64,000 nt of DNA, taken from Phoenix dactylifera. Lineage: Eukaryota > Streptophyta > Magnoliopsida > Arecales > Arecaceae. The notes below the pieces were generated by a model that saw only the letters and a list, made by a program, of their open reading frames with translations, was not told where the DNA came from and did not search any database. The DNA lies in the NCBI RefSeq assembly GCF_009389715.1, contig NC_052402.1, forward strand, positions 20,158,956-20,222,955, given 5' to 3'. Made by a program: the position numbers and the translations under genes. The first letter of the stretch is position 1. Every line of letters starts with the position of its first letter. Shown here one piece after another: positions 34,956-61,922 of the stretch.

Positions 34956-35794
34956 ATGAGGAATTTGTGTAAGCAAATCGTTATGGCTTCAACTCTCTCT
35001 TCTTGGAAGAATATTAGCATGAAGAGTTGTATCTTGAAACTTCATAGTTTGAGTCTCTATATCAGTGGTTTGTGTTGCCTAATTTTACCTTTAAGAGGTT
35101 AGCAAGGGATTGAATTGCATGGTCCCTAGTATATTTCAAGGACCTAAAGCTTTCTAATTGCCTGTCATCATCCTGAGGGGTATATATATCTACAAATTTA
35201 TAATTGGTGAATGTGTTGAATCAACCGAAATAATCATTAAAAGAAGTATGTGGTTGAGAGATTATGCCTTGACGAATTAGGAAAGGATTAGATGGCCACT
35301 TACATGCATGCCATTCTTAAGGTCCTGGAGCTTGCTACCTGTCTCTGTTCAACTTAAGGAGGGTCTCTGGAAACTTACAATAGATGAATATTTTGCAGCG
35401 TAAAGGGACCAAGATATATGTAGTCATTAAACGTACGTGATTGAGAGAGAGAGAGAGATGCGCTGCAGGAGTCTGTCAGTTTAGTGTATGCGTACCTTGA
35501 TAACCAGAACTGGACTTCTTGTTCCAAACACGCGCGCACGCGTGCACACAAAAAAGGACAGGATGTTTTCCAGCTTTGCCACGGACAGATGTGTATCTTT
35601 CGCGAGGAAGAAGGATTCACCTTCCCTTCCTCGAATCACTGTCGGGTTGGATTATGCAATATCCACTTCGAGATCCGCAAAGATGGATGCATAAAAAAGT
35701 TCGGAACACTTTGAGATATGTGGAGAGCATAATTGAATGATCAATGTCGTGGAAGAAGATCAATTATTCTTTCATGCGATATGACCTGAATCCG
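34956..35794. other. Spacer with short (GA)n tract
   Basis: The 3' flank of the 34.3-kb gene. A (GA)n run lies at 35442-35459. The overlapping short open frames at about 35480-35740 on + have no recognisable content. It ends at the target duplication of the nested hAT element. Confidence 0.4.
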
Positions 35795-37557
35795 ATTGTC
35801 ACTAGAGGTACAAATGGGTCGGGTTGATCCGTGACCCAACCCAACACGTCACGATTAAATCCGATCTAACCTATTTTAAAGGACCGATGGGGCTGGGTTA
35901 GATTGTAAAATTGAACCGGTTTTATTTTTGGGGTTGGATATGAGTTTTCTGAATTTTGGCTCAATCCAACCTAATCCACTTGAAATTTAAGTAATTTTGG
36001 GTTTCCAACTCTACGTCTCGACTCGACCCGAACCTGCTAAACCATTTGCGCCTGTGGGCCGCATGAGTGTAAGCCTTAGCGCCCAGCTAATGCTTAAGGC
36101 CCGACCCAAAGCTCTATGACTCTTAAGTCTTCTCTCTGATCTCTACTTTCTACCATTTCGTTTACCAATTTTGTGATTACTCAATTCCTCGTCATTTTGA
36201 TTTTCCACTAAGCTTCATCTCTTCCCCTCTTCTCTTCAGCCATCTCGAGTCCCAACCCGTCCGGCCATCCTAGATCAGCAAATTCCCATCAGCCATCGTT
36301 GTCTCTCCCAGACGACAGACCCTAGTCATAGTAGATTCGCCAATTCTTCTTTCCCATCGCATATCATAGTCGATCTCAATACCCTTTGGTCGTGCAAAAC
36401 CATAGATTCTGCATCTCTTTAGCGCCGAGTGACTTCGGCATCCTGTGACTTCGTCTTTCGATGACTTTGGCGTGCTTCATTCTGACTCTCAAGGTATCCG
36501 CCTCCTTCGAAACCCTAGAACTACATATTTAAGGAGAGTTGGGGGAGAAGCAGAGAGAGAGAGAAGCGATCGGCTCTATTTCCCTATCATATCTCGAGGT
36601 GACTTCGGTAAATCTCTCATCTTTCTTACTTTCTTCTTTGTTTTCTCGATTTCTATCAGTGCGTGAATCGTTGGATCGACGACGAATTAGGGTTCCAAGA
36701 ATTGAATGTACGTGCCCTCCCACTGCGTTTCGGCTTCCCCATTTTTTCATTTATAGAGGTTTTGAGGCTTTGAGCTGCTTTCTGGTTTTGTTTTGGAGTG
36801 GGGAGGCGGAGGGGGGGAATGGTGAGGGGAGAGTTTGATGGTGATGCTTGGTGATTTCTTTTGTTTGATTTGATTTGTGGAGTTTTGATCGGAGGAAGAT
36901 TCGGGTTGGGAGTCGGAATTTAGGTTATTTTTTGAATGTTTTGGTTGTTTTTTGGTGAACCACAGAATCAGGGTTGGCCGGTTGTTTTGCTTGAGGTATT
37001 TTGGTGGAATTTTTCATCGACATTTTATTTTAAATTTTTTTGTCTGGTTGTGTTTGGGGAATTTGGAGAAGTGGGTTAGGGTTAGAGGAGTTTGGCTTGA
37101 GTTTTCTTGGTGGTTTTTGGGAGCAAAGCTAAAATTTTTGGTAAGGTTATCCGTATTCTTTTGATTTTTTACTTCTTATATGGATTGTCTTACATGATGA
37201 ACTGTTTTGGTTTCTTATATGATCAGTAGTTTCTCCCATTTCTGAATTGGACCAAAAGCATATCCCTTTGCACTATCATGTGCCAATAGTCAACACAACA
37301 TGACATGCAAAACATATAGTGCTAGCAATTCACCAGCATAAGCACAACGCATGATAGTTTGCTACATCCCATAATGATGATTATACTTCAGTAACTTCTT
37401 GCAATACAAATATGAAACAAGCTCTCAATCATTTAGTTGCATTTCATGCTTATACATTTTTATTGAATTATGTGGAAAATAGGTTAATGTCCATAATGAG
37501 TTTTAATGAAAACACGGCTGAGTTTCAAGTATAGTTCGTTGTAGTAGTTCTCAAGCT

Positions 37558-39530
37558 ATGGAGACCTCTAATATAGATAGCTCCAAAGCAAGCGAAAAAA
37601 AGAGGTCGAAGATATGGAAGCATTATAGTGAGGTAAAAAACCAAAAGGACAAGGCTAAATATAATTACTGCCATTTTATTTTTTTCAGCCGATCCTAAAA
37701 ATGGAACAAGTCATTTTCACAAACATACAAAACATCGTAAGTCTAAAAAAATTTTTGATAGGAGTCAGAAATAGTTAATAGATATTGTGACTTCAAAAGA
37801 TGGTGTTGCATTGAATGAGTTGATTCCCTATTCTTTTGATCAAGAGCGAAGCTGCGAGGATCTTATAAGAATGGCAATTCTATATGAGTTTCCATATACA
37901 ACAGTTGAGCGCTTAGATTTTTAGAAATTTGTTAGAAATCTTAGACCTAAATTTTATGTTGTTTCAAGGACAATATTGGCATCTGATTGCTTTATAGCAT
38001 ATGAAAAAAAAAAAAGAAGACTTGATGATTTGTTTAAGGCAAACTGTGGAAGAATTAGCTTAACATCTGATATATGGATATCAAAATTAGATATTGGAAT
38101 GCATGTGTCTCACTGCATATTACATTGCTAATGATTAGAAACTTAAAAACCATCTTATCAATTTTAAGATGGTTCCTTCACCATATACAGGTTTAGTCGC
38201 TAGTAATTGTATAACTAGCTGCAGTTTATCTTGGAATATCGAGAAAAAATTGGGTTCAATCATCCTTGATAATTTGTCAGAAAATACAATTATGGCCATG
38301 GAACTTCAAAGACAATTTAGAAGAGATCTACTTTTGGATGGTAAGTTCTTTTATGTGCGTTGTTGTGCACATATTCTTAATTTGATTGTAAAGGATGGGT
38401 TGAAGATAGTGGAGGGTGCTATTCATAGGATTCACGAGGCTGTTAAATATGTAAAATAATCTCAAGCAAGATTAGAAATTTTATGGAAATTGTGAAACAA
38501 TTAAATATGAATGGTAAGAAAAGGATATGCATAGATGTACATACTCGTTGGAATTTTATGTATCTCATAATAGATGATGCTATACAATTCAAAGATATGT
38601 TTATGCAACTTGAGGCACGAGATCCTAATTTTGAAGATGCGCCAATTGAGGAAGATTGGTCTAAAAGCACTATTATTTGTAACTTCTTAAAGGTTTTTCA
38701 TCATATAACTGATTTTTTTCACAAACAAAATGTCCAACTACAAATTTGTATTTCTATAAAATTTGGAGAATTCAGATGCTATTAATTCAAGAATCTAGGA
38801 GTTCAAATATAGTTGTGACAATGATGGTCTTAAAGATGCAAGAAAAATTTGACAAATATTGGAAGGAATGCTCTCACATTCTTACCGTAGGGGTTGTTCT
38901 TAATCCAAGACATAAGATGAAGCTTATTAGGTATTGTTTCAGAAAATCTATGGTAATGTTGACTATGTTTCATGTGAGATCAAGAAAGTGTATGATGTTC
39001 TTGAAAATCTTTATGATCATTATACAATATTATACGGTGCAAATGTCTCTCATGTTCGAGTGGAGGAGATGGTGTCTACATCTCATGGTAGAGGAGATGA
39101 GATTCTTTTTTTTGCAAGACTATGAAGAATTTATCCAAGAAGAAGAAGTTGCCCAACCATCCAAGTCATAAAATAGAGATTTACTTGGAAGAGAAGATAT
39201 TTTATGATCTCTAATTTGGATGTTTGCATTAAAACATAAATCAATATTACTAATAAAAATGACTTGCAATGTTCTTTTTTTGAGCAGGTTCATTTATTAG
39301 GAAATCAAAATTTTGACATTTTAGACTATTGGAGATTCAATGAATCAAAATATTTAATATTATCTAAGATGGTACATGATATCTTGGCAATTTCTGTGTC
39401 TATCGTTGCATCTGAGTCTGTATTAATTCAGCATTGCTAGCAAGGTTTTGGATGATTTCTGTAGTAGTCTATCCCTGGATACGGTTAAAGCATTATATAA
39501 TATACACACAAGATTGGCTTTGAGACATCT
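37558..39530 (+). pseudogene. Decayed hAT transposase
   Basis: ATG at 37558 opens a BED-finger-like start ('SKIWKHYSEV…NYC', then 'GTSHFHKHTKH'). Many frameshifts and stops follow. Recognisable core text includes 'ISLTSDIW' (about 38057), 'FYVRCCAHILNLIVKDGL' (about 38349), 'VHTRWNFMYLI' (about 38540) and a C-terminal dimerisation remnant 'FDILDYWRF…DILAISVSIVASESV' (about 39311-39420). It differs clearly from the intact copy at 28.9 kb, so it belongs to another hAT lineage. The 36100-37550 stretch upstream looks like its leader: pyrimidine-rich, with the 'aaaccctag' word common in plant 5' regions. Confidence 0.8.
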
Positions 39531-39609
39531 TGCCTTATCTTGCAGGTTCAATTTTTTAAAAAATCCATAAACTTTATCATATACTAGTGGTTTAAAACTT
39601 TTCTTTTTT

Positions 39610-40565
39610 TTTTTTGGTACAACGGCTGCTCATACTGCTCTAGCATGAGTACAACTAGCACAGTAGAGAAAAAAGAGATGGCATAAGGGTGGAGGGGCGG
39701 CCACAAAATATGTCCAAAGAACCTCTCCTGAGTAGTGAGGAATGAAGGAGGCGACCAAATCTGCCACCTTGTTTGCCTTCCAATACATATAAGTAGCCTG
39801 AAATGAGCCACAATCTCTTACCATCTTGTGGATATCCCAGAGTAGTGGGTTGCCATCGCCCTACCGATCCTCATTCTGAAACCACTCAATCACCATAGCC
39901 GAGTCCCCTTACAAAAAGATGTTGTCAGCCCCTAGAATATGCCTCGCGTAGGTGATGCCCTCTCAAGCTATCCTGAGCTCCGCCCCTATAGCTATCATGT
40001 CATAGCTACGACGCCCTCCACCAGCAATCAGTCTGGAGTTATGATCCCTGATTATAAAACCCATACCTCCTCTGTCTCCACCAATGGACACACTGCCGTC
40101 GAAATTCACCTTAAGATGGCCAAGGGGCGGGGGCTCCCAAGAGACAAGAGTAAATCTAGGCGCAGCAGCAGCAAAGTGGGAGTTCTAAATGTCCCTAGCT
40201 ATCTCGGATGAAGTTGTCATGGTAGTATTAATGAACTCAATAGCATGAAGGAGAGCTCTATCCATCACAAACCTCGGGGATGTCTTCCTACCTTCAAAGA
40301 AGCGGGTGTTTTTGTCCAAACAGATGGGATAGGTCAAATAAGCACAAGTGATGCCCCGCTCAATAGAACTCGATCTCCACAAGAAATCCCTTAGATGGCG
40401 TAGAAGCTCCTCATCCAACCCCACAGACCACAGTATAAAAAATGAAGCCCTCCTCCAAACCTGCACTGCCCGAGGGCAACCGAGAAGAACATGGTTGATA
40501 AACTCCTCCATGTCAGGGCACTCCTCACACATCGGAGTAGTCCTCACGGCCCTCCTGGCCACCAC
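39610..40565 (-). pseudogene. LINE zf-RVT and RNase H domains (3' half)
   Basis: The reverse strand encodes 'CEECPDMEEFINHVLLGC', the C-x2-C…H-x4-C pattern of the zinc-binding domain after plant LINE reverse transcriptase, then 'AVQVWRRA'. Further downstream come 'HLKVNFDGSVSIGGDRGGMGF', 'AIGAELRIAWEGI' and 'YWKANKVADLVAS', the D-E-D positions of RNase H. Several stops are present. The zinc-binding box begins on the other side of the gypsy element, at 55534 upward. Confidence 0.8.
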
Positions 40566-40915
40566 TGATGCAGCACAACTGCGGGGAAAGAGGAGAAGAA
40601 GGAAGAACAAGAGAGGGAGAAGGAAGAAGAGGTTCTAAGGACGCAGGAAGAAGAGAAGGGGAGGAGGAGGAAGAAGAAGATAAGATGTGGGGGAAAAGAA
40701 AGTTCTTAATCATTCATTCATTAAAACCCTAATCATGAAAATAGTTCCCTATATATAGGGCCAAATAAACACAATTAACATAAAACCCCCTTACACAAAA
40801 ATAAATCCTAATAAGCCTACAAATAACATAAATAAGCCCTAAAATGCAAATAAACTCAGAAATAAAAATAAAACAAATGTGCAAATAAAATGGTCCCTAG
40901 CTGATGTCCCCATCA
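40566..40915 (-). repeat. 3' LTR of the reverse-strand gypsy element
   Basis: In element orientation it starts tgatggggacatcag and ends gtgctgcatca. A palindromic TATA-like ctatatatag lies at about 40748-40757. On the element strand an A/G-rich tract (ccaagaggagt) precedes it as the polypurine tract. Confidence 0.93.
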
Positions 40916-40929
40916 ACTCCTCTTGGATG

Positions 40930-41720
40930 GGAAAAACTGGACCCCGTCGAGTACAGGTTTGGCCGGCTATCGTACTGCTCCAGAAGATCGGGGTCAAGGC
41001 GCTGCAACTGTGCTCTGGAAATCTACGTCACATCAGACTTTGATCGACCTTTCTACCGAACAAGGTAATGTTGGTAACCACCATTCCTGGTTGAAATAAC
41101 CTGCTCATCCAATATATGTTCTATTTGTTCTCTGCGTGCATGAAATTTGGGAGGTGGTGGTTCAACAGCAGGTAATAGGTCAGGGTGTCCAACATGGGCA
41201 GGTATATCAATAAAGGGGTCAGAAGGCATGAATATTATCTTTTTGTATGGGACTAAATCTTCAATATTAAATATCGCACTAATTTCATAGTATTCAGGAA
41301 GATCCACAACATATGCATTCGAACTGATTTTCTTTAAGATTTTGAACGGTTCTGCACTCCAAGTTTGCAATTTCTTAAACGTATCTGAAGAAAATCGTTC
41401 AAGCCTAATTCTTATCATGACGTAATCTTTTTCACTTAGCTCTTTATAACGTCTGCGTAAATCAGCAAGAAATTTATATTTTAAGTTATTAAAGTGACTA
41501 CAATTGCTGATTTCTTGATGCAATAAATGTGGATGTGATGCAATTGATTGTGCAGACTCAAAGACTCTATACTGATGAGACATGAAAAACAGGTCTATGG
41601 GTTGCTTAGGTTTGTAATCATGCACCACTTTGAATGGACTCATACCTATGGACTTGTTAACCAAACTATTACATGCAAACTCAACTGTCGGTAACATTAA
41701 ATTTTAGGTCATAGCATATG
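40930..41720 (-). pseudogene. Integrase C-terminus and chromodomain-like tail of the gypsy element
   Basis: The reverse strand reads 'FACNSLVNKSIGMSPF' (end of the integrase core), 'YKPKQPIDL', 'LQTWSAEPFKILKKISSNAYVVDLP' (the GPF/Y-type region) and 'EHILDEQVISTRNGGYQHYLVR', the start of a chromodomain-like fold. Two in-frame stops follow (after 'YLVR' and after 'SDVT') before 'QLQRLDPDLLEQY'. Integrase catalytic residues are missing because the core was deleted. Confidence 0.85.
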
Positions 41721-41739
41721 CATTCGAACTACCAGAAAA

Positions 41740-42200
41740 CACGCATATAGTGACGGAGATTCCCGTCACTATACCGTGTTTCCAGTTACTAATACGGAAT
41801 TTGTGACCGGAGCTCTCGTCACTGAATTGGTTACAAAAACATGTGTCACTAAATTCTCAGTGACGACGGCGATTCTTGTCACTAACCTTTGTGACAGAAT
41901 CGCCGTCACTAAGCCGTTACAAATTCAAGAATTAAATATTTAAGAAATTACATATTTTCTGTCACTATCCAGTTGCGACGTTAGTGACGGAGGTAACTTG
42001 GTCACTGATTTTGTCACAGAATGCGGTCACAAGTTTGGTCACTGACCCTCAAGACAAGGTTACCGTCACTAATTTGTTACAAACGTTCTGAGCAAAATCA
42101 ATTTTTATTAACCAAAATTCTGTCACTAAGTTTATGACTGCTCGTTACAATACTTGGTAAACAATTTCGTAACCAAAATTTGGTCACTGATTACAATCTA
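41740..42200. repeat. CACTA left subterminal repeats
   Basis: Many short direct and inverted copies of gtgacgg, cgtcactaa, ggtcactga and gttacaaa. The partner array at the other end (about 52930-53160) has the same words in mirror orientation. Such arrays are protein-binding sites in En/Spm elements. Confidence 0.8.
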
Positions 42201-42432
42201 ATAACCTGGTATATTTGGTACATTGATTGGCTCATAATAATAATAATAATAATAATATCATTAACAGCAAAGGCATTCAATATTACGCAAAAGTCATTTA
42301 AAATATCATTCAAAATAGGCATCAACATGTCCTAAATCCATCAAAATCAAAGTCTAAAAATATGTCATAGAGATCAACAGAGATTTCATTCCTCCTAGGA
42401 ATGCAAAGACCTATCATCTAAGGCAAAAGCAA

Positions 42433-43406
42433 TCATAATGAAGCATGATCAGCAGAACCAGATTCACCATTACTCCCCTGATCTACATGCCTTGGTCCAA
42501 AGCCAATCTCTTCTCTCATCTTTTGAAGAACCTCCTCTTGCCATTTTTTCTTTTCCTGCTCAAGAATACGTAGAAGGTCTTCACGTGTGTACAGCTCTGG
42601 AGCTTGACTTGTAGAGGTGGAAGAGGATGATGATTGCCCAATAATTCTAGTGAGATCCTCTAGGGGACTAAAGCCATAGACATGGCCATGAGTTGGGACA
42701 CCAGTTGCCTCAAACCACAAGTCATAATCATGTGGAGGAGCATCTGAGGTAGAGGCATCACCATAATTTTTGGAGTATTCAGCTGAATACTTTGCCTTCC
42801 AGTTGATTTAAAAGAAGAGAAAAATATTATGGTGGATCAAACAAGAGATAAACATGAGCAAGCTCAATAATATTTATGAATCATAAAAAAATTATACTTA
42901 CCATGATAGCTTCACTTCTCTTATCTACATATCCTCCCATGCCTTGCTTTGTCTTATGCGTCCGATTAAAAGATTCAACTATTGTTGGCTCCCTACCTAA
43001 CATTAATTTCTACAAAAGAGAAAAGAAAAAATTCATTAACATATAATGGGCTGATTGGAGATGATTGAACAATAATATAAAAATTATTATAGAAATCTAA
43101 TTGAATAAAGATGTGTACCAGTCGTTCGTCATGATTGACAAATGCGATTGATCCTCCACAGTGTTTAGAGATGCTACCATTCTTCATGGTGTTTCTATTG
43201 TTTTTGTTGGCTTCTGATTTCTTCTTCCATTTTGGGGAGATCCAAATGTCAATTAGCTTATTCCAATTTTTTCTAGAGATCCAATTAGGGGGTTTATCAC
43301 GAGCTCTATTTAAATCTCCTTTTGCTTCCAGAAGCTTTTGGCTTCTGACCCTCCCTAATGAGGTTATCAACCGTCGCTGACAATGCTTGTTCCAAACTTG
43401 ATGCAC
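42433..43406 (-). CDS. CACTA TNPA-like protein (plant transposase, Transposase_24 family)
   Basis: Three reverse-strand exons are visible, with phase-matched GT-AG borders: about 43406-43119, 43009-42902 and 42795-42433. Key text is 'WNKLIDIWISPKWKKKSEANKNNR' with 'HCGGSIAF' (exon 1), 'EPTIVESFNRTHKTKQG' (exon 2) and 'KYSAEYSKNYG', 'HDYDLWFEATG' and a coiled-coil-like 'EQEKKKWQEEVLQKMREE' (exon 3). This domain is the DNA-binding partner protein of CACTA elements, which binds subterminal repeats and helps the TNPD transposase. No lesion is seen in these exons. The 5' exon is not located; a GC-rich open stretch at 44417-44797 on the same strand may be leader. Confidence 0.78.
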
Positions 43407-44407
43407 ATGAGGAATTAATCTTTACAAGTTATCTGTTCATTCATCTAATACCAGCAATATTCAAAAAGCATTTAATCTTTACAAAGACAAGGAATACAAG
43501 TCAAATCATCCAAATTTACATATGGAATACTATCTGCTTCACATAGAACAAATGTCAATATACATGATCGCCTCTGATGCTAGGAAAGCATGGTACTTCT
43601 TAGCAAGCTTTTTGACCAGCTTCTTGATTGCACACTGGAAATAAGTCACAATCATGATGCAACACCACTTTCCACCACTTTCCATTTTTCCTTGCAGATG
43701 AACAATGATTGTAGAAATGAATAACATGACGAAGAAATTAAAATTCATGAACTTTACAGAGTCCCAACCCATCAACCCTCAAAATTACAACAGCTTATTT
43801 TTCAACAAAGCTTATTTTAAGATTACAACAGAGCTGCAAATGGGTTTATTTTAGACATCAAAGGTCTAAAATCCATGAGCTTATTTTAAGATTACAACAG
43901 AACTGGCAGAAGAAACTATCAAAGGTCTAAAATCCATGAGCTTATTTTCATATGAAATTACAACAGAGCTGGCAAATGGGTTTAAGATTTTTTAAACAGA
44001 GCTTATTTTAGACAAGTCTCTCCACTCACTATAATAATCTACTGATTCAACATGTAAGGTTGCAAGCAAGTTGGGCTGCAAATGGGTTTAAGATTATTTT
44101 TTTTTTGTTAAATAATTCATTGGGTTTTCAACTCGAGTTGCATCAAGAATAATCCCAGCATATTAAATGAGAGGGGGGCGTCGACGGATCCACAGGCGAA
44201 GATGACACATATAGTCTTTCTTTGTACGCTATGCCAGATAATGACTAGATGAAGATGAACACAAAGAGATGCAAACACAGGATCATGTATATAATCGAAA
44301 AGCGCGGCGCCGGATCCACAGGCGGAGACCCTCGGTAGGTTCCTTCCCCCTTCCTCTTCCTCTTCTTCGTTTCTTTTATTTTGTTATCATGGGGTAAAAG
44401 GAAATGG

Positions 44408-44740
44408 GGTTAGGGTTTACCTCCAGGAAGAACCAGTCGTGGGTTCTGAAAACCCTAGCCGACGAGCAAGAAGGAGGGGGGCGTCGACGGGGTGATGTAG
44501 CCGTGATGATCTCGTCCCGGGTGAGAAGGAGATGAACACAGGTGCCGAGCAAAGAGATAATGAAACCCTTGGTAGGTTAGGGTTTACCTCCGGGAAGAAC
44601 CAATTGTGGGTTCTGAAAACCCTAGACGACGAGCACGAAGGAGGGGGGCGTCGACGAGGTGATGTAGCCGCGATCGGGAGGCGTGATGTAGCCGTGGTCG
44701 CCGTCGACGGGGAGGCAAAAATGGTCGGCAAGGGGGAGCC
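44408..44740. repeat. Tandem duplication of about 167 bp in the CACTA leader
   Basis: Two copies of a segment starting ttagggtttacctcc, followed by ggaagaacca and later aaaaccctag and ggaggggggcgtcgacg, start at about 44410 and 44577. They differ at several positions. A shorter related piece lies at about 44170. The GC content is far above the surroundings, which might reflect a captured host gene leader. Confidence 0.7.
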
Positions 44741-45072
44741 GGAGAGGAGAGGCCGGAGGTGGAGGAGAGGAGAGGAGATGGGAAGCTGCGATGCCAAATC
44801 CCTAACCCTCCAATCGGGACGACGCCAAACTTTTAATCGAGACCGGGGATAGGGAAGTACTTCGAGTCACAGCTCCAAATCGGGACTCGACTAAGTCGGT
44901 CCGCAAGCCAAATTTCATTTCAAACTATTTTTTATCTATAAGGCTGATTGGACGGAACTTGCAGGAAAAAATATTTTTGAACTATAAAGCATGGTAGAAA
45001 AATCCCAGACCTTCTTTCAAAATCCAACCCCATTGCAGGAAAGTAGCAATAGGGGTGCAAATGGGTCATAGC

Positions 45073-47876: not shown

Positions 47877-47881
47877 AAGCT

Positions 47882-47893
47882 TGGTATCAGAGC
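47882..47893 (+). other. Primer-binding site (initiator tRNA-Met)
   Basis: tggtatcagagc lies five bases after the 5' LTR. It matches the complement of the plant initiator tRNA-Met 3' end, as used by most plant gypsy and copia elements. Confidence 0.9.
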
Positions 47894-48116
47894 AAAGGTT
47901 AAGAAAAGTCCTGTCAGAGCAATAGGATGAGTCAGGATTAAGTATAGGATTATACTATGGAGCATAGAATTTTTCTGTATGTTATTTTATGAGTCATTTA
48001 CAACTCAGTAAAATATATCATGACTCAGTGTGTAACGACCATCCTCTCTTTTTGACTTTTTTAGAGAGATATAAAGAATACCTCCAAGGAGAGGACCTAC
48101 TCGTCCTGGAAAGAGG

Positions 48117-49715
48117 ATGGAGCCAGATATAGCATTGGATGTGGGTTCTGCACATGTCGAGCCCCAAAGAGAAAAATCTCCTCCTGCTGATAGACGGAGG
48201 GTTGATGATCAAGGAGAGGTAGGAAGTAGAGATGCATTGATGGAACAGTTACTGGCGGAGAATCAGGCTCTGAAGGAGCAGATTGCTCGGGGGAAATCTC
48301 CTGCCCCGTCAGTAGTATCCATCCCACCTCCTGTAGTTGTGCCAAGAAGTTTGGCCAGGCGGGCTCTAGATGATGAGGGGATTACTGTACAGGAATTTCT
48401 GAGGCTCAGAACCCCGGAGTTTAAGGGGGAAGAAGGTGAAGATCCTCAGAGATTTCTGGAGGAGACTGAAAAGATGATACGGAGACTGCCCTGTTCTGAT
48501 GCAAGAGTTATAGAACTTGTAGGGCTTACAATGAAGGAAGATGCCTGGGACTGGTACCAGAGACAAGTGGAGGACAGATTGTACAGTAGGAATCCTCCAA
48601 CCTGGGAAGAGTTCAGGCAAGCAGTGATGGATGAGTTTTTGTCTCCGGCTGAGAGGCAAAATCGGGCTCTTCAGTTTGAGAGGCTGAAGCAGATGCCCGG
48701 AATGAGCGTATCTGAGTACGCTCGTGAGTTCACTAGATTGGGGAAGTATGCTCCTTACATCATCCCCACTGAAGCTGCCAGGATAGAAAGATTCAGACGG
48801 GGTCTGATTTTTCCGCTTTATAATGCGGTGTTGGCTGTAGAGGTCCCCACCTTGTCGAGGCTGATAGATAAAGCAAAATAGTGGGAGACCAGAAACAAAG
48901 AGGAAAGAGCTGAAAGAGAACAGAGAAAAATGAGTGTGGGGAAGGAGCAAAGCAGAAGAGGTAGATCTGAGGGAGTAGATCTCTCGGAGGGCCCGACGGA
49001 GCAGTCTGTATGCTCAACTCCACCTGCCCCACGTAAGAGGAAATGGAGGGAAAGAGGTCAATCACAAGATACTTTTCTACCATCAGTACCTCGTCCTCCG
49101 GTCACTATGGCCAGAACTGAATCTAAGTTTCAATCATGGCCAGTGTGTGGCATATGTGGGAAGCAGCACCCTGACAGATGCAGAATGGGTCAGGGAGTGT
49201 GCTACAGATGTGGACAGCCGGGTCATTTTGTCAGAGAATGCCCGCAGGGTGCCACCCAGCAGTTTGTGCCTTTAACATCCTACCCTTCTGTGCAGATGGA
49301 CAGGCCTAGTAGTAGGGGGCCTGTAGGCAGAGGCAGAGGTCAGACACCAGCGTCACAGCAGAGTGCCGGACCATCTCAGCCATTAGCTCCAGCAGGCAGA
49401 GGGCAAGGAAGGGTGTTTACGGTAAATCCACAAGAGGCACAGGCATCGAATGCAGCTGTGACAGGTATGCTCCTCATTGATAAGATTAAAGCTAGAGTGT
49501 TGTTTGATTTTGGAGCTACCCATTCATTTGTGTCCCCTTATTTTGCTAAGAAGTTAGCTAAGGATAAGATATTAATGCATATTCCCTTAGCTATTAGTAC
49601 ATCTGTAGGGGATAGTATAAAAGCGAAGTATGTGTATATTACCTGTGTGGTAGAGATAGAAGGTAAAACACTTCTAATTGATTTGATTTCCAATACCACA
49701 TCGAGCAGAATATGA
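48117..49715 (+). pseudogene. Gag plus start of protease of the Tekay-like element, one nonsense codon
   Basis: The frame is continuous from ATG 48117 to TGA about 49713-49715, except for one in-frame TAG at 48879-48881. The N-terminal part has a coiled-coil-like 'LMEQLLAENQALKEQIA'. The capsid domain follows ('ITVQEFLRLRTPEFKGEE', 'DAWDWYQRQ', 'PTWEEFRQAV', 'MSVSEYAREFTRLGKYAP'). A CCHC zinc knuckle 'CYRCGQPGHFVREC' lies at about 49201-49242. The protease begins 'ARVLFDFGATHSFVSP': the active-site motif is DFG where family members have DSG. The protein ends soon after, where pol has been removed. A truncated gag and an altered protease mean the copy could move only with help. Confidence 0.9.
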
Positions 49716-49799
49716 AAAGCAGATACACTCACCCCTTTGAGTAATCAGGTAATTTACTCTTTTAAATTCGAGGACGAATTTTATATAAGGGGGGGAGGA

Positions 49800-52603
49800 T
49801 GTAATAACCCCAAAATATTTTTTTTATATAAAAAGGGATAGAATAGTCCTTTTCAATTAATATAAGGGGTAAAATTGGAAGGAATCAAAAGATAATGGCA
49901 TAGTTGTAGATCCGTTGAAGTGGTAAGGCCAAAATGGGAAATTTTAGAGTTTGATTTGACTTAAATGGGGGTTGTCTGGCGGTGGGTTGGCTGAGAAGAG
50001 GGAATTGAGACAGAGAGGGAGAGGAGGTCTCAGGCGTGGAAACACAGAGAGAGGGAAAAAGAGAAGAAGAAGAAGAAGAAAGAGGGAGGGGATTCGAGGT
50101 GCAAGGAAGCTCCGGTTGCGCTTCTAGCTGAAGGAAAAAGTATAGATCTCCTTCCCCTCTACGCAAGGACCTCGATTTCCAAAAAGAAAAAGGTAAATAT
50201 CCGTCCCTATCTAGTCTTTTGGTGACATTAGGCTATACAAAGGGTGGATGTAGTCTAGAGGAGTCAGATAAGGGTTGTAGAGGTGGTTAAAAGAGAAAGA
50301 ATCGGATTTCGACAAATTTTTCTGGCACTACGGAAAAACTGTGTCGAAGTCCCAAATTCGGCGAATTATTTAGGGGGTCAAACGACCTCCGATAGCAATG
50401 CATGTTACCTCTTTAGAATTCCCTATGAGTGTAGAATGTTAGGTAAAAATTTCATCAAATTTGGAGTTTGGAAAGTGGATCAAACCCGGGATGAAGTAAC
50501 CGGCTGTCAGTCCGGGTTACTGTTCATCCGGGTGGGAAAATAAGAAATTTTATGCCAAAATAGGGTATTAAGCCTAGATTAGGCTAAGGGAGACCTTGTA
50601 CTCGTGCAAGGGAGTCCCTAATACACATAAATGATGAGTTAATTAATAGAAAAAGAAAAAGAGAAAGAAAAGAAAAGATTTAGGGAACGGGGAAGTTGAA
50701 TCAATTAAAGTTCCCTATGTTATAATTGGCACGTAGATTATAGCCCTTGATACAAGACTAAATGTATTGTAAATGCATGTCACAGTTGGGCAAGAAGCTA
50801 GGGAACAGGAGGAAGAAGTTTTCCACTGCCTGCTGTAGAATTCTAGAGGCGTATCGAGGCCGTGCCGGATTGGCAGGTGAGTGGGAGTCATGTACTTTGC
50901 ACCATGAGCATCCTTAATTCATTTTCATGAATGTCGCCAAGTGCGAATTGATTCCACTTGAGCATATTGATTGATATTCTAGTAGATTCCTCTATAATCT
51001 TGATTCTCCATGCTTGATTATTCTGTACATGCATTTGAGGGAACATTGAGAGGAATTACGAGGGGTTGATGAGTAATCAAATTGATTCCGAATTGTGAAA
51101 TAACTTCTTTTGTAAATTGATTTCATTTTCTCTATTTCAAAGACTTGTAGAGCCCTTCTCATGGTATATTGAGTTGCATTGTACTCCCGTGATTCCTCAC
51201 TCCCAACCCTGATGTTAGTTATAATTGGGTCGTGGCCGAGTGAGTGGTAGTCTTGACTATGCTCCTTTTTAGTAGAGTATTGGGAGGGTGCATTATGGCA
51301 TTTATGCATGGCTTGGCAGTATCTGCAGGACACCTATAGTCGATGGGGTTGAACATCGGCCTTTGTGCACATAGTAGCCTTCTGGGTGGGCGGAGCCCAG
51401 TCCCTTCCTAGGGGGGGACACGGCCCTAGGCGTAGGATCGGCCGGTCCTACGACTTATATTCTGCTTGCCGCCGGGCATAGTAAGACCCCGCGAGGTGCA
51501 GTATGGCTTTCCGCGGATGTAGAATTCCCGCGAGGTGCCGTTTAGTATGTAGATGTGAGATGGATTTCTGTTCTGGATACTGGCCTGCATTTATATGATC
51601 AATGTGGTGTCTTATCCTGCATATGCATGTGACAGTGGGGAGTTGTTGCTGGTTCGCCTGGGGCGTAAAACCCACCTCCTGACAGCTGTCTAGTGGTGAT
51701 TTACATATTGGTGTGGTGTCATATTCGATGTATGCATATGGCAGTAGGGAGTTGTTGCTGGTTCGCCTGGGGCGTAAAACCCACCTCCCGATAGCTGTCT
51801 TGTTGATGATTCAGCCTATTGACACCTGATTTATATGATTCAGTACTATGACCTGTTGAACATATTCATGAGTAGCATATATGTTGACTTGATTATTCCA
51901 TATATGCTTCAGATGAGTTGATATTGATTGTGGTGATATTGATGATTTACTCCATATTCTTTATGTTGAGTTCATGTTCATCTTGTTATTGATCTTGAGA
52001 TTTTACCTCGAGCCATGATTATATCTTGTCTCATGTGCATAGTACTCTCTACTCCACTCACTGAGTATTTATATACTCACTCCCCAGTTTGATGTTTTTG
52101 ATTGCAGGAAAGGTATTGTATAGAGAGGAGCAGGATTAGTGGTTGCCTGCTAGCTGTGCCGCTCCATAGTATAGTATAGTATAATGTAAATAGAGGTTTA
52201 TACCTTTTGGTGTATTATAAACCTTCTATTGTATATAGTGCATAGTTACAGTCATAGATCCTGTTGTGGATATGGGTTTGACCATGGATGGAATGGGAAC
52301 CAGATTTTTATACAGATGAGTTATATGCCTGAGATAATGTATTAATATATATTGTCCAGGTTCATTATGTGACGGATTATGTGATTGCTGCTCTGACAGG
52401 TAGTGTGTTGTATGTATTGAGATAATCCTGACAGGTCACTATAGAAAAAGTGATCATTTTGTGCATGCATCATGCCAAATTTTTCAAGATTTATTGATAA
52501 TTGATAGGTAGTAGGGTTCTACGCGGTGGCTGGTGGCCTTATGCCTACCCGCACCCTAGGACCGTCGCGGCGGCCCGCCGGGAACGGGGCGGGGGTCGTG
52601 ACA
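49800..52603 (+). repeat. 3' LTR of the Tekay-like element
   Basis: Near-identical to the 5' LTR. Differences include one T in the T run near the start, G/C at about 49928, an extra G near 51414 and a C/T change near 51680. Confidence 0.95.
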
Positions 52604-52635
52604 ATAGCCGACACCATGAGATTTGAAAATGAGAA

Positions 52636-52740
52636 GAAGAAATTTGAGTTTTCTGGAGAGCGATTGGAATTTGGGTTATCGAAGGAATTTGAGTTTTCTG
52701 GAGAGCGATTGGAATTTGGGTTATCGAAGGAATTTGGGCG
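52636..52740. repeat. 45-bp tandem duplication in CACTA
   Basis: Two perfect head-to-tail copies of a 45-bp unit that starts gaatttgagttttctgg, plus a short third start. Read on + it gives a 15-residue repeat, but the frame has no other support. It lies directly downstream of the Tekay-like insertion. Confidence 0.85.
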
Positions 52741-53175
52741 GGACAGCGGGCACACTTAGTTTCATTTTGGATTTTCCTCCTTTTATCTTTTTTTTAATTT
52801 AGAATTACTCAAAAATAATATTTTTAATATTTTTGGAATTAAAAATTAAATTTGGTGATGGAAATTTTTGTCAATAACCTGTTACCGCCAAAAATAATCT
52901 TTTAAAAATTTATAAATACTTGGGTTACGATATTTGTGACGGCTGAATTTGTCACTATCTGTTTGCAATTTCGGTTATCATTTTGCTGACAGATACTCCG
53001 TCACTATGATGGTCACTAAGTTTTGGCGCCCATCCTACCCGCGCATTTTTTAACCGGTCTGTCACTAATCGGTCACTAAGTTTACACCACGGTCATCAAA
53101 TTTCTGTCGGTCACTAATCAGTCACAAATAGTGACTGATAACGGTGCGTCACTATACACGTGTTTTCTGGTAGTG

Positions 53176-53900
53176 TCGGTCTGAGCCTATGATGTGGAAG
53201 GTTGGGCAGAAATGCTCCGGAAACTAGATCAATTGCACGTTGGATATCACGCATTGGAGAAAGTGCATCCGAAAGATCATCAGGGACTACATAATGAAAC
53301 TCCTCTAGAAGGGAAACTACTATAGGGGAATATTCAAGATTGGACGCCACATGGGTATCTTTAGCTACAAGTGCCAATTCAGGTGACTGGCTCTCAATAT
53401 CTGTCACTACCTCTTCGATAGTAGTGATGTGAAGTAGCTTGGTTGTACTTAGATCAATAGTCTCCCTTTGGGAATCATTTTAGATAAAGTCTAATTCTGT
53501 AGGTTCGTCTTCAAAGTCTTCTTCATAGTCTTCTATATTTGGTTCATAGACTTCTTCGACATATTCGACCTCTTGGCTCCTAACTTCTGGTTCAGTAATC
53601 AGGTAGGTCCTAATGGAACATTGGGATGCTATGTGGTCGAATTTGTTGACACCTTGAGCATTAGGTTTGGTGCCCAAGAAAATGGGGAAGGATTACAGGT
53701 GGTGCAACCAAACCGATTTTAGGTTGGGCTGCAATAAGAGTTGGCGGTGTAGGGGTCCTAGAAATTTTGCATGAGCTCACGGATCTCTTGTGTGAATTCT
53801 TTGTATCCAGCCCGCATGGCAACGATCTGTTCTAGGAGAGACCTCAAAATGTCGGAATTCATGGTCGCTACAGGGGTTTTAGGTTGATTGAAATAGTACT
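53176..53900 (-). pseudogene. Gag end and protease-RT linker of the reverse-strand gypsy element
   Basis: Reading on the reverse strand: a gag start-like 'MNSDILRSLLEQIVAM' (about 53860), a zinc-knuckle scrap 'HIASQCSIRTYLI' (about 53620), an acidic stretch, and then 'VVSLLEEFHYVVPDDL…SPMRDIQRAIDLVSGA' and 'NLPHHRL' ending at about 53185. The last is the conserved linker into reverse transcriptase. The RT core should follow but is gone. The CACTA end begins within about 10 bp. The 53900-55167 stretch is the element's leader, partly GC-rich, without a gene. Confidence 0.8.
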
Positions 53901-55167
53901 CCATATCACTACAGGTTGGCTTGCAATGATGACACTAGGTGATGATGTAAAATGCAGTGTCACTAATGAAACCCTTATAAGTATGATGCAGGACCAGATT
54001 TGATGCAGGACAACCTACTAATGCAATCTATTATGATTTCAGAGATCAGCAAGTCTTCACAAGAATAACTTAAAGTTTAAATGTTGCTGATTTTTACTTC
54101 GATTATTCAAAATTAAGGATTAAGATTATTCAATTTAAGAAATTAGATTGCAATCAAGTAGTACAGTTGTTCTGATCCTAAAGTAATCTGATCGGATAAT
54201 ATTGAGAAACGTCCTGTTACTAAGGTGTGCTAATTTAATATCAAGATTTAATGGGTAATAGGGCAGGTTCGGAAGTGAAAGGTTCAATGTTCTGAATTGT
54301 GACAGCAATATAAGTTTTCAAAATGTGGCTATCATGCAAGAGAACTAGAACATAATTAAATGAACAAACCCAATAAAAGTGGAAACCTATCACCTGTTGT
54401 GAAGTAGACGACCAGAGTCGTTCGCTCGTGGGCGATGATCAGGAGTGCGGTTGTAGCTGATGGACCCTTCAAAGAGCTCCAATTGGATTTCTGCGCAGCA
54501 ACTCGTCGGGCTTGCTGTGAAAATGGGCCTGTCGAACCCAAAATAAAGAAGAACGGCTATGGTGGGGCCGGATGGGCTTGATGGGTCTTCGGCCCAACAA
54601 GAAAGAGGGAAGAGGGGGGGGGGGACCGGGGAATGAGCCAGTGGAGAGGGTTTCACCGTTGGAATCCTTGATGAAATAAAAGAGGGAGGGAGAGTTGATG
54701 GGCAAAGTGCCGTGAGGAGTGGTCGGGACAGATGAAGAAGGGGGGAAGAGAAGGCGGCGGCGGCGGGGTGGGGCGACGGGGCGATCGGACTCAGGCGGCA
54801 GCAGAGGAGACGGAAGTGGTGAGCGGCAATGGAGGAAGAGGAAGGGGCGGAGCGCGGCGGCGGAGAGACAAGGCGGCGCTGCAGTGGAGGCGGAGGCAGT
54901 TGGCGCAGACACGGCGACAGGCAGAAGGGGAAATCTTCCGGTGGAGCTCTTCCTTTGTTCTCTGTGACAACCGAGAGGGAGGGAGGAACCTTCTCTCTTA
55001 TTTTTTTTTGAAGTGTGTGTGAGTTCTTCTGGTGAGCATCGAGGGGAAGAGACAGAGATGAAGTCTCGGGTGAGATTTTGGTGGAGTGAATGACTAGGGC
55101 AGTGGACCATGGGAGGTTGAGGGAGAAAATGCTCGATCGTGGCTTTGGCAACGGAGGTAAAGCCGGT

Positions 55168-55179
55168 GCTCTGATACCA
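55168..55179 (-). other. Primer-binding site of the reverse-strand gypsy element
   Basis: The reverse strand reads tggtatcagagc just inside the 5' LTR (55183-55533), complementary to initiator tRNA-Met. Confidence 0.88.
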
Positions 55180-55182
55180 AGT

Positions 55183-55533
55183 TGATGCAGCACAACTGCG
55201 GGGAAAGAGGAGAAGAAGGAAGAACAAGAGAGGGAGAAGGAAGAAGAGGTTCTAGGGACGCAGGAAGAAGAGAAGGGGAGGAGGAGGAAGAAGAAGAATA
55301 AGATGTGGGGGAAAAGAAAGTTCTTAATCATTCATTCATTAAAACCCTAATCATGAAAATAGTTCCCTATATATAGGGCCAAATAAACACAATTAATATA
55401 AAACTCCCTTACACAAAAATAAATTTTAATAAGCCCACAAATAACACAAATAAGCCCTAAAATGCAAATAAACCTAGAAATAAAAATAAAACAAATGTGC
55501 AAATAAAATGGTCCCTAGCTGATGTCCCCATCA
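55183..55533 (-). repeat. 5' LTR of the reverse-strand gypsy element
   Basis: A 351-bp partner of 40566-40915, with nine transitions and a one-base indel between them. It is followed on + by the accac duplication and then by the rest of the LINE. Confidence 0.93.
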
Positions 55534-56103
55534 ACCACACTCTTGGTCAGTAATAGCCCCACGCCACCTTCCAGATGAATAAAGTCACATGATGATGGAT
55601 GCGCATCCTCAAAATCCACCCACTATTGATCTGTCTGGTGGTTTCCCCTCCCATCAGTACCTATAGATCCTTGGCACGTACCTTCATCCTCCCTGTCGAA
55701 GTCCAAACCAATCTGTCCGTCGTCTCCCTAGCAAGAATCGGAAGTGCCAGAACCCTCTCAGCTAGCTATTCCCGGAATGCGTCCCGGATCAACACCTCAT
55801 TCCATCTACCCACTCTTGGAGTGATCAGATCACTGATCACTGACTCTACAACCCGCCAGCCTCACCGAATCAACTATCGTCGGCACTCAACACAACGGCT
55901 GCTCGATCACCCAAATGCCCTCCAACGCATCATGGACTGCCCATTTCCGATGGTCCACCTGATCAGAGAGAGCATCGTCGAAGTACGGGCACAAATTTTC
56001 TTCCAAATGAAGGAGTAGTGACGCCCTACTCGAAAGTCAGCCGCCATAGTGTGTGCACCATACTTGCCTCTCATACGGGACACCACAAGCTGTTCAGTTC
56101 TAA
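55534..56103 (-). pseudogene. LINE reverse transcriptase/zf-RVT segment, upstream of the gypsy insertion
   Basis: The reverse strand carries 'SFIWKKIC', 'IRWTIGNGQSM', 'RVGRWNEVLIRDAF', 'RETTDRLVWTSTGRM' and 'VTLFIWKVA', the order seen in the linker between plant LINE RT and its zinc-binding box. One frameshift near 55560 and several stops are present. Removing the gypsy element and one accac joins it directly to the text at 40565. Confidence 0.8.
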
Positions 56104-56111
56104 GATGTACC

Positions 56112-57081
56112 TAGGGGTGCAAATGGGTCGGGTCGGGTCGGGTCCTAGGTGACCCCGATCCGACCCGATTTTTTGTTCGGGTCCCAATTTTGGACCCGGA
56201 CCCGACCCGGTTGAAGATCGGGTTGGGTCGGGTCGGGTCGGGTCCGAGTCGGGTTCGGATCGGATCCGAGTCTGAGTCGAGTCGGGTCCGGGTCCATCAG
56301 GTCCCTTTTTTTGTGCTTTTGGGAAAAAATTTGGGCAAATCTAATTTTAGTCATATCATAATTATGAGGTGCTGGGTGACCCATGACTTGAAATACTCGC
56401 AATTGAGCTCCAGCCAGAACAGATGACTCATGACTAACAAACTAAGTCGGTCTACAAGCCAAATTTCATATCCCACTATTTTTTATCTATATGACTGATT
56501 GGACGGAACTCGGTGTCTCCCAGCTCCCCTCTCACGAGGACAAAAAAAATCCCAAACCTTCTTCCAAAATCCAATTCCATTACAGAAAACTGGCACATGA
56601 CCCATATTCAGTTGCAGCGTTCCCTCACTTTCTCCCTTCAAAAGTTAAAAGAAACAAAAAACCAAAAAACAGAAGGAAAAAAAAAAAAGAGGCAGCTACC
56701 GAGACACCAGAGGTATCAACAGTGTAATAGATCGAGAGAGAATCCCGACAGGCCGACGTTCCTTTGGATTTTGTGAACCTATGCTTGTTGCTAACTTGCT
56801 ATCCTCCCACGCTGACCAACAGAACCACAACCCACGCCAAAAAAAAAGAAAAAAAAGAAAAAAAAAAGAAAAAGAAAAGACTCTCTCTTGCTTTTCCTCT
56901 CTCTCTCCGGATCCATTCGGGTCGGGTCGGGTCCGTTTGGTAAACCCAGACCCGACCCAGAAAATGATTCGGGTTCAATTTTAGGACCCGACCCGGACCT
57001 GCGGGTCCTAAAATTCGGATCGGGTCGGGTCTATGCGGGTCGGGTCGGGTCACGGGTCGACCCGACCCATTTGCAGCCTTA
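56112..57081. mobile_element. Non-autonomous hAT-type element (970 bp) inside the LINE
   Basis: Ends are taggggtgcaaatgggtcgg and, in reverse complement of the right end, taaggctgcaaatgggtcgg. Flanks gatgtacc (56104-56111) and gatgtatc (57082-57089) give an 8-bp target duplication with one mismatch. Both arms are packed with gggtcgggtc/gacccgaccc repeats. The centre has A-rich tracts and no coding capacity. Part of it (56442-56595) resembles 44893-45050. Confidence 0.8.
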
Positions 57082-57089
57082 GATGTATC

Positions 57090-57193
57090 TGGCCACATGT
57101 CTCGCCGCCAGAATCTCCCGCCTCACCGCTAATGAGTGTACACTTAATCTAGCAAACCTGACCGGCTGACAAATCACCTCCCATGCCACCAAG
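57090..57193 (-). pseudogene. LINE ORF2 fragment, 5'-truncated end
   Basis: The reverse strand reads 'LVAWEVICQPVRFARLSV' and 'ARHVARYI', a match to the 'W-x-x-VC-P' segment that precedes 'SFIWK' in plant LINEs. It marks the right boundary of the LINE, where the copy was truncated. Confidence 0.6.
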
Positions 57194-58051
57194 TGAATTT
57201 CGTATTTTTTTAATTTGTAGATGACCAACCTTCTCATACTAATTACATGGTGGAAGGTTACGAAACATCTATTGTTATTAGTATTGATGATTAGCTTATG
57301 CAGGTAACAATTATTTTTATTATTTTATTTATATTGTAAAGAATATTGTAATTTTTATGCATAGTTAACTATATATTTATTATCTAAGTGAAAAGGAGAT
57401 TTTTTTTTAGCTCTTTTCTGTCAAGTCCAGACAACGTCAGAGTGTGAATTTGCGAACTGAAAAGTAGGAAATTCTTATGTGATTACTTCTCTCTCTCTCA
57501 CTCTCCCTCCTCATGTGGTGAATGTTGATTTGTATGTCTCTCCATATGGGGGCTTTGACTATTGATATTAATCAAGATATATCTATAGACTGTAGTTAGA
57601 ACCCAGTGGTTTCAAATTCTGCAGCTAGACCATTAGGAGTTGCCATCTTGAATTATGACCATTAGGTTTCAAACCAACAATCTAGGCTCTCTGTGTAATA
57701 TTGCACCAACATTTTGAATGCTACCCATTGTTTTTTTTTATATTCTGGTACCTATTTCAAGTATCAGTTCACTTATTTCCACTTAAATCCTTGTGCTCCT
57801 TTTTTTTTTTTCCACTATATGACTGAAAATCAAAAATCTGGCTGGACGACCAAGGAAGCCCCCAGACTCTATTGGATGATTTAGATCTAACCCAGACCCG
57901 AATGACCTAGTAGGTCAAAAATTATAACTATGGATCCGATCCGATCATCTATTAGATTGAATATGAATCCAAAATTAGAACTCGAATAAAAAATCAGATT
58001 GGATCGAGAATCACTCATAACTCGGTCTGATCCGATCCATTTGCATCCCTA
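57194..58051. other. 3' remainder of the outermost hAT
   Basis: AT-rich, without coding text. The last 190 bp hold gacccgaatgacc, ggatccgatccgatc and similar repeats, ending in the terminal ccatttgcatcccta. Confidence 0.55.
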
Positions 58052-58059
58052 ATTGCCAC

Positions 58060-58439: not shown

Positions 58440-58960
58440 TAAATAAATGAAAAAGTTCGGAGTGTCTTGACATATGTGCAATAACTAATCGTAATTATGT
58501 ACTAAGACATATGGATGAATAAAAAAGTTTGGTAGGCTTTGAGATTTGCACGATGATGATCCTCAACTTAGCTCATATACAAAAAATGCTTTGAGATCTG
58601 TGCTGACGGATAAATTAAAAGATTCAGTGTATTTTGAGATCTCTACGATAGGAGATTTTTTACTATAGGCTATATACTAAATATGCTTTTGAGATCTGTG
58701 CAAATAGATAATTGAAGGTGTTCAAAGTGCTTTGAGATATGTGCGATTGATGATCTTTAGCTATGGACTATATACTTAAAATGATTTAATAACTGTGCAA
58801 GTAAATGAATGAAAAAGCTTGGTGAGTGATCCTTAACCATTAAGATCTATGCAGATAAATGAATGAAAATATTCGAAGTGCTTTAAAATCTATGAATGAT
58901 CCTCAGCAATGAATTATATACTAAGAATTTTTTGAGATATGTGCCAATACTTCACCATAC
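58440..58960 (+). repeat. Degenerate minisatellite of about 110-130 bp
   Basis: Four to five diverged copies contain gataaatgaaaaagttcgg, then gtgctttgagatctgtgc, then gatcctcaacta and atactaa. Spacing varies from about 110 to 130 bp. No coding content. The remainder to 59400 is spacer plus the 3' end of the RING-H2 gene. Confidence 0.55.
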
Positions 58961-61709: not shown

Positions 61710-61748
<39 letters not shown>

Positions 61749-61891
61749 TATATATTAATACATATATATACATATATATACACATATATACACATATATA
61801 TATACACATATATACACACATATATATATATATATACACATATATACACATATATATACATATAAATGTGTGTGTTGCGCGCGCGCGCGCG

Positions 61892-61922
<31 letters not shown>

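What the first reader, a model, noticed from the sequence alone, without database searches (positions are those of the whole stretch)
35795..58059. Five-level transposon nest with readable boundaries at nearly every level
The order is hAT, then LINE, then gypsy, then CACTA, then Tekay-like gypsy. Duplications seen are attgtcac/attgccac, accac, tcg and atagc. Each inner element interrupts recognisable text of its host: the gypsy splits the LINE zinc-binding box, and the CACTA splits gypsy pol. Four transposition mechanisms are stacked in one 22-kb locus, with a sixth element (hAT-type, 56112-57081) in the other half of the LINE. That makes an unusually complete stratigraphic record.
Basis: partly seen in the sequence, partly recalled or inferred. 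Interest (0 to 1): 0.9.

Follow-up and report, generated by a model that had tools for sequence, protein, structure and literature searches.

The report
Nest of transposons with repaired junction
In a plant chromosome five mobile elements sit one inside the other like Russian dolls, which is common in plants, and one of the seams looks like a patched break with about 2,000 bases lost rather than a clean insertion.

Summary
Flank duplications of 7/8, 5/5, 5/5 and 7/8 bases mark the hAT, the gypsy, the innermost element and the small hAT. LTR divergence (9/350 outer, 7/2803 inner; Fisher p = 1.3e-5) agrees with the order. Two points fail. The LINE has no detectable duplication. And the CACTA does not simply split gypsy pol: the two halves lie 663-665 residues apart in three relatives, so RT, RNase H and the integrase core (~2 kb) are gone exactly at the CACTA's left end. 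That junction holds a 16-mer also found 405 bp away in the same gypsy integrase, so the left 'tcg' most likely lies in templated filler. Best reading: CACTA insertion, then a break at its left end, resection, and microhomology-primed (polymerase-theta-like) repair. Each process is known; nesting is routine in plants. Empty alleles could not be tested: the search of the window's own genome did not complete.

The parts
35795..35802 (.). left target-site copy of outer hAT, ATTGTCAC
35803..58051 (+). level 1: outer hAT element (transposase pieces about 37522-39567; the LINE lies in what reads by eye as its last intron; ends TAGAGGTACAAATGGG and, reversed, TAGGGATGCAAATGGA)
   Evidence: ends; hAT-like_RNase-H 4.3e-26, Dimer_Tnp_hAT 3.2e-13; stops and frameshifts
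58052..58059 (.). right target-site copy of outer hAT, ATTGCCAC
39604..57204 (-). level 2: 5'-truncated LINE with zf-RVT and RNase H-like pieces; T run near 39604-39616 read as its poly(A); right boundary approximate; no target-site duplication found
   Evidence: zf-RVT 1.2e-4, RVT_3 0.02 and 0.084, all below curated cut-offs; duplication search negative
40561..40565 (.). left target-site copy of gypsy, ACCAC
40566..55533 (-). level 3: Ty3/gypsy element, LTRs 40566-40915 and 55183-55533, primer-site text TGGTATCAGAGC beside 55182 (label tRNA-Met recalled); no capsid match, RT to integrase core missing
55534..55538 (.). right target-site copy of gypsy, ACCAC
41727..53175 (-). level 4: CACTA element, inverted ends matching over 16 bp from base 2, Transposase_24 pieces in 42884-43421
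41715..41730 (.). left CACTA junction: 16-mer CATATGCATTCGAACT spanning the boundary, read as templated filler plus 3-nt microhomology
   Evidence: same 16-mer at 41310-41325; 0 of 1000 shuffles gave a junction-spanning match of 13 or longer
41310..41325 (.). copy of the 16-mer read as the template, in the integrase C-terminal NAY text that relative P0005 shares
53176..53178 (.). right flank TCG of the CACTA, contiguous with gypsy RT-start text
41056..41703 (-). gypsy integrase C-terminal piece (216 aa)
   Evidence: SH3_Tf2-1 1e-13; Ty3 polyprotein residues 1295-1448, E 1.1e-8; residues 784-981 of P0005
53180..53479 (-). gypsy piece ending at the start of the reverse transcriptase (100 aa)
   Evidence: P0001 199-246, P0004 384-443, P0005 54-118
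45073..52603 (+). level 5: long-LTR Ty3/gypsy-type element, LTRs 45073-47876 and 49800-52603 (2804 bp, 7 substitutions), internal part 1923 bp with gag and truncated protease only
45068..45072 (.). left target-site copy of level 5, ATAGC
52604..52608 (.). right target-site copy of level 5, ATAGC
56112..57081 (.). side insertion: 970-bp hAT-type element in the LINE, flanks GATGTACC (56104-56111) / GATGTATC (57082-57089)
   Evidence: LINE text continues in one frame when short flanks are joined

Best explanation
A degenerate plant hAT transposon received a 5'-truncated LINE in its last intron. The LINE received a Ty3/gypsy element (in its zinc-binding box) and, separately, a small hAT element. 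The gypsy element received a CACTA element near the start of its reverse transcriptase. The CACTA received a recent gag-protease-only Ty3/gypsy-type element. All this is ordinary cut-and-paste, target-primed and integrase-mediated insertion. One seam is not an insertion seam. After the CACTA had entered, a double-strand break at its left end was resected through about 2 kb of gypsy pol. The CACTA end, one base short, paired through AGT with the gypsy integrase about 400 bp away, copied 13 bases (TCGAATGCATATG, gypsy strand) and was joined to integrase text. Shown: the layers, the missing 2 kb and the repeated 16-mer at the junction. Inferred: the order break then repair, the enzyme (polymerase theta), and the cause of the break (aborted CACTA excision).
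For: Ends and duplications at exact positions. Domains of the five layers. LINE frame open across the gypsy site (TKSV|VARRAVRTTPMCEEC) and LINE text in one frame across the small-hAT site. LTR pairs 9/350 against 7/2803 substitutions, p = 1.3e-5. 665, 663 and 665 residues separate the two pol pieces in P0001, P0004 and P0005, and there the gap holds RVT_1, RNase H, H2C2 and rve. 16-mer at the left CACTA junction present only twice in the window; 0 of 1000 shuffles at 13 or more. The right junction shows no spanning repeat of 8 or more within 2 kb. The match includes the one aberrant end base (A where the other end implies C). In rice 86 of 94 excisions left deletions and/or fillers, fillers averaged 13 bp and one excision took 2,479 bp from one side (PMC4423477, passages). 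Theta-mediated joining in Arabidopsis uses on average 3 bp of microhomology and leaves templated insertions (PMC10923293, passages).
Against: TCG on both sides has only a 1-in-64 chance of being coincidence, which the repair reading must accept. The gypsy carries other internal losses unrelated to the CACTA: no capsid match in any of the 10 open stretches of 55 aa or more of its 5' part (5, 5), and about 130 residues absent near 53480 by comparison with P0002 (arithmetic; protease region by position only). So the pol loss could be older than the CACTA. A fourth relative, P0003, gives a smaller gap of about 450 residues. In the gypsy-site join, the LINE's upstream zinc-box text FIWKVAWG stands in another frame, so a frameshift lies just upstream. 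No empty allele, other copy or long read was available, so assembly error is untested. The unfiltered random-position control gave repeats of 16 or more at 28 of 1500 positions. The LINE has no detectable target duplication.
Confidence: 0.78

Rival explanations
1. One reading: the CACTA inserted cleanly into gypsy with a true TCG duplication; the pol deletion and its filler were already present in the gypsy element (a deletion derivative), and the terminal C of the CACTA later mutated to A.
For: TCG on both sides; the gypsy has other internal losses.
Against: The CACTA must then have landed by chance within a 16-base junction out of 3516 remaining gypsy bases (0.5%, or 1.4% allowing three deletion junctions), and the 4 CACTA bases AACT, including the mutated one, must match the template by accident.
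Confidence: 0.15
2. The CACTA insertion itself was imprecise, deleting 2 kb of target and copying filler at one end, with no later break.
For: Same footprint would result; the right junction is clean.
Against: Transposon insertions in rice were generally precise with simple duplications (PMC4423477, abstract passage).
Confidence: 0.15
3. Part of the nest is an assembly artefact.
For: Nested near-identical LTRs are hard to assemble (general knowledge); reads could not be examined.
Against: Duplications flank four elements exactly or nearly so, and LINE text continues across two insertions; a misjoin would not be expected to produce these.
Confidence: 0.03

Closest known systems
Nested LTR retrotransposons of plants (PMC6911290, abstract and one section read; the maize adh1-region nests are recalled, from no call)
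   Same: younger elements inside older ones, order confirmed by LTR divergence
   Different: here DNA transposons and a LINE alternate with LTR elements, five levels deep
Transposon excision scars with flanking deletion and filler in rice (PMC4423477, passages)
   Same: one-sided kilobase deletion starting at a transposon end; filler of about 13 bp
   Different: here the transposon is still in place; only its flank is lost
Theta-mediated end joining with templated insertion in Arabidopsis (PMC10923293, passages)
   Same: 3-nt microhomology, short insertion copied from the flank, kilobase deletion possible
   Different: old natural junction; the enzyme is inferred from the footprint only
TR-GAG elements (name recalled and used as a search term; 10 papers hold it, listing only)
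   Same: LTRs with gag but no reverse transcriptase or integrase
   Different: protease partly kept; one copy seen, so mobility in this form is not shown

Membership tests
hAT (level 1) | 8-bp target duplication and short inverted ends | tested here: met
   7 of 8 flank bases equal; ends TAGAGGTACAAATGGG and TAGGGATGCAAATGGA
hAT (level 1) | hAT transposase with C-terminal dimerisation domain | tested here: met
   PF14372 4.3e-26, PF05699 3.2e-13; frame broken
LINE (level 2) | RT-type coding sequence with zf-RVT, poly(A) tail | tested here: inconclusive
   zf-RVT 1.2e-4 and two RVT_3 pieces in the expected order before the T run at 39604, but all below curated cut-offs
LINE (level 2) | target-site duplication | tested here: inconclusive
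   none above displaced controls; decay or a deletion at the target could hide it
Ty3/gypsy (level 3) | LTR pair, primer site, 5-bp duplication, RT before integrase | tested here: met
   LTRs, TGGTATCAGAGC, ACCAC; RT-start and integrase pieces in gypsy order in relatives
CACTA (level 4) | inverted ends beginning CACTA | tested here: inconclusive
   right end reads CACTACCAGAAAACACG inward, left end AACTACCAGAAAACACG
CACTA (level 4) | 3-bp target duplication (PMC8978399, passage) | tested here: inconclusive
   TCG both sides, but the left one lies in apparent filler
CACTA (level 4) | En/Spm-type protein domain | tested here: met
   Transposase_24 1.2e-6, 29.2 bits against cut-off 28.7; a second piece 1.6e-4, below cut-off
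Tekay chromovirus (level 5) | Tekay-clade RT/integrase with chromodomain | not testable with these tools
   RT and integrase absent from the 1923-bp interior; gag and protease are Ty3-type; the 9 protease relatives carry no clade name
Non-autonomous gag-only LTR element (TR-GAG-like, level 5) | several copies sharing the same deletion | not tested
   own genome could not be searched

The most novel reading that the evidence does not exclude
The left CACTA seam records a one-ended or aborted CACTA excision: the transposase cut one end, the element stayed, and host theta-type repair lost 2 kb of flank and rebuilt the end one base short with a 13-base patch. CACTA elements would then erode the elements that host them while staying in place.
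Probability: 0.35. Interest if true: 0.4.

Novelty: new member of a known kind. Interest (0 to 1): 0.24.

Why it matters
The nest orders five insertions, and two LTR dates bracket the CACTA (between about 1.0 and 0.1 My at an assumed 1.3e-8 per site per year, twice that at 6.5e-9, both rates assumed). The useful lesson is practical: a 3-bp duplication read by eye can be repair filler, and a host split by an insertion should be checked against relatives for missing sequence before the site is called clean.

Tried and rejected
Considered that the missing pol text had merely decayed: rejected, since integrase text resumes within a few bases of the junction and 663-665 residues are absent against three relatives. 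Looked for a LINE duplication: none. Looked for a right end belonging to the hAT terminus at 45050: with up to 3 mismatches the window holds 7 matches to that terminus, 2 of them on the minus strand, and those are the right ends of the small and the outer hAT. Alignment of 52604-53175 with the small hAT gave only weak scores. Rfam scan of the window: no family. Literature: nested, duplication, LTR, CACTA, hAT and LINE terms together, 2 papers; 'levels of nesting' with two other terms, 1; fillers at transposon excision with five terms, none. No claim is made that a nest of this kind is unpublished.

Two searches used an option the tool documents: a long reference with stops read as residues, scoring only an open stretch. 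The nucleoredoxin search (18636-19301 only; 120 of 200 hits listed) placed the host only as a flowering plant, probably a monocot: the five best hits with a source name are Colocasia, Anthurium, Alopecurus, Dioscorea and Puccinellia, dicots follow.

The LINE rows of the membership test were lowered to inconclusive. The P0003 gap, the frameshift beside the gypsy site and the scanned-stretch counts were set beside the evidence.
Full report
Observation. The ends, flanks and lengths were measured in scripts. Level 1, a hAT element, spans 35803-58051 (22,249 bp, about 4.6 kb of its own) with ATTGTCAC/ATTGCCAC on its flanks. Level 2, a LINE on the minus strand, spans about 39604-57204; about 1.65 kb of it remains. 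Level 3, a Ty3/gypsy element on the minus strand, spans 40566-55533 with 350/351-bp LTRs and ACCAC flanks. Level 4, a CACTA element, spans 41727-53175. Level 5 spans 45073-52603 with 2804-bp LTRs and ATAGC flanks. A 970-bp hAT-type element sits at 56112-57081 in the LINE with GATGTACC/GATGTATC flanks.

Identity of the layers. Pfam gave hAT-like_RNase-H and Dimer_Tnp_hAT for level 1; zf-RVT and two RVT_3 pieces, all below curated cut-offs, for the LINE; the Tf2-1-type SH3 domain for the gypsy integrase piece; Transposase_24 for the CACTA; Retrotrans_gag, Ty3_capsid, a zinc knuckle and RVP_2 for level 5. The gypsy integrase piece aligns to residues 1295-1448 of the Ty3 polyprotein of 7q5b. The LINE lies after the hAT dimerisation domain, in what reads by eye as its last intron.

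Order and age. With one ACCAC copy removed and 90-base flanks joined, one LINE frame is open across the gypsy site (TKSV|VARR); the zinc-box text further upstream (FIWKVAWG) is in another frame, so the LINE has a frameshift just before the site. Across the small-hAT site LINE text continues in a single frame. The gypsy LTRs differ at 9 of 350 aligned bases, all transitions; those of level 5 at 7 of 2803, 6 of them transitions; one-sided Fisher p = 1.3e-5. At an assumed 1.3e-8 per site per year this is about 1.0 and 0.1 My, twice that at 6.5e-9. The ages agree with the nesting order.

The gypsy halves either side of the CACTA were searched apart. Six relatives of the RT-start piece were found. 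In P0001, P0004 and P0005 the RT-start piece ends at residue 246, 443 and 118 and the integrase piece begins at 912, 1107 and 784: gaps of 665, 663 and 665. The integrase match starts two residues later in P0001 and P0005, so by arithmetic all three gaps come to 663; in P0001 it covers 36 residues only. A fourth, P0003, matches both pieces (160 and 610; about 450 residues apart), but its Pfam list shows no integrase domain, so it was left out of the count. P0002 and P0006 match only the RT-start piece of the two. The gap holds RVT_1, RNase H, H2C2 and rve domains in all three, rve below its cut-off in two. About 2 kb of pol is therefore absent exactly at the CACTA's left end.

The left junction. 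CATATGCATTCGAACT occurs at 41715-41730, across the junction, and at 41310-41325, in the integrase NAY text that P0005 shares; nowhere else in the window on either strand. All 16-mers recurring within 2 kb were listed for 13,953 positions of the nest, LTRs and level 5 left out: 32 runs. This pair makes up two of them and is the only one in gypsy, LINE or outer hAT sequence; the rest lie in the CACTA (tandem and short repeats, one palindrome) and in the small hAT. In 1000 dinucleotide shuffles the longest junction-spanning match was 12, reached 3 times. A cruder control at 1500 random positions, not filtered for repeats, gave 16 or more at 28 (1.9%). The match covers 12 flank bases and 4 CACTA bases, among them the one base that departs from the other CACTA end (A for C). 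On the gypsy strand the junction reads GGTAGT-TCGAATGCATATG-CTATGACC: a CACTA end lacking its last base, three bases (AGT) shared with the template, 13 copied bases, then integrase text. The right junction has no such repeat.

Mechanism. This is the footprint of microhomology-primed, templated end joining. Passages of PMC10923293 describe an average of 3 bp of microhomology, templated insertions and some kilobase deletions for theta-mediated joining in Arabidopsis. Passages of PMC4423477 report for rice that 8 of 94 excisions were perfect, that fillers averaged 13 bp, and that one excision took 2,479 bp from one side. Here the element stayed, so an aborted or one-ended excision, an imprecise insertion, or an unrelated break at the CACTA end are all possible. 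The alternative, a clean insertion into an older deletion joint, needs the CACTA to hit a 16-base target in 3516 bases (0.5%, or 1.4% allowing three joints). Against that, the repair reading must take the left TCG as chance (1 in 64). The gypsy's other losses keep the alternative alive: no capsid match in any of the 10 open stretches of 55 aa or more of its 5' part, and about 130 residues absent near 53480 against P0002.

Level 5. Its interior is 1923 bp with gag (in-frame stop at 48879), a zinc knuckle and a protease cut at profile position 99 of 136. It either moved with another element's enzymes or lost pol after landing; one copy cannot tell. 'Tekay' could not be tested.

Verdict. A real and well-read nest of known kinds, one seam of which was probably misread. 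Nesting in plants is routine: PMC6911290 (abstract and one section read) counts 1491 nested pairs in 12 genomes; passages of PMC2672092 and PMC11020628 describe tools that resolve nests; PMC3903597 (passages) finds nested insertions in over a third of candidate coding MULEs of maize and rice.

Noticed in passing
45050-45072 and 44890-45048: Inside the CACTA lies a hAT left terminus (TAGGGGTGCAAATGGGTC) without a matching right end, and just left of it a ~160-nt stretch (90% identical over its first 70 nt) that also occurs inside the small hAT at 56441-56595. A truncated seventh element or a shared captured fragment.
   Followed up: partly
29053-30937: A second hAT transposase with long open frames (29053-30495 and 30410-30937; Dimer_Tnp_hAT 1.5e-26), 32% identical over 105 aa to the outer hAT; possibly a much less decayed element.
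   Followed up: partly
35683-35720 and 58511-58548: A 38-nt stretch of the outer hAT's left flank recurs in its right flank (32 of 38 bases; score 46 against a maximum of 28 in 200 shuffles), where degenerate repeats lie (58590-58869): the hAT may have landed in a degenerate repeat array.
   Followed up: partly
59824-60963: Two copies of a unit spaced about 645 bp, 82-90% identical piecewise.
   Followed up: no
61690-62122: Long AT-rich microsatellite array.
   Followed up: no
18633-20014: Nucleoredoxin-like gene on the minus strand; the five best named relatives are monocots (18636-19301 searched).
   Followed up: partly
14907-16223: Several tandem repeat arrays with periods of 11-98 bp.
   Followed up: no
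43829-43844 and 44071-44086: Two further hAT-end-like stretches (2-3 mismatches) inside the CACTA, within its own short repeats.
   Followed up: no
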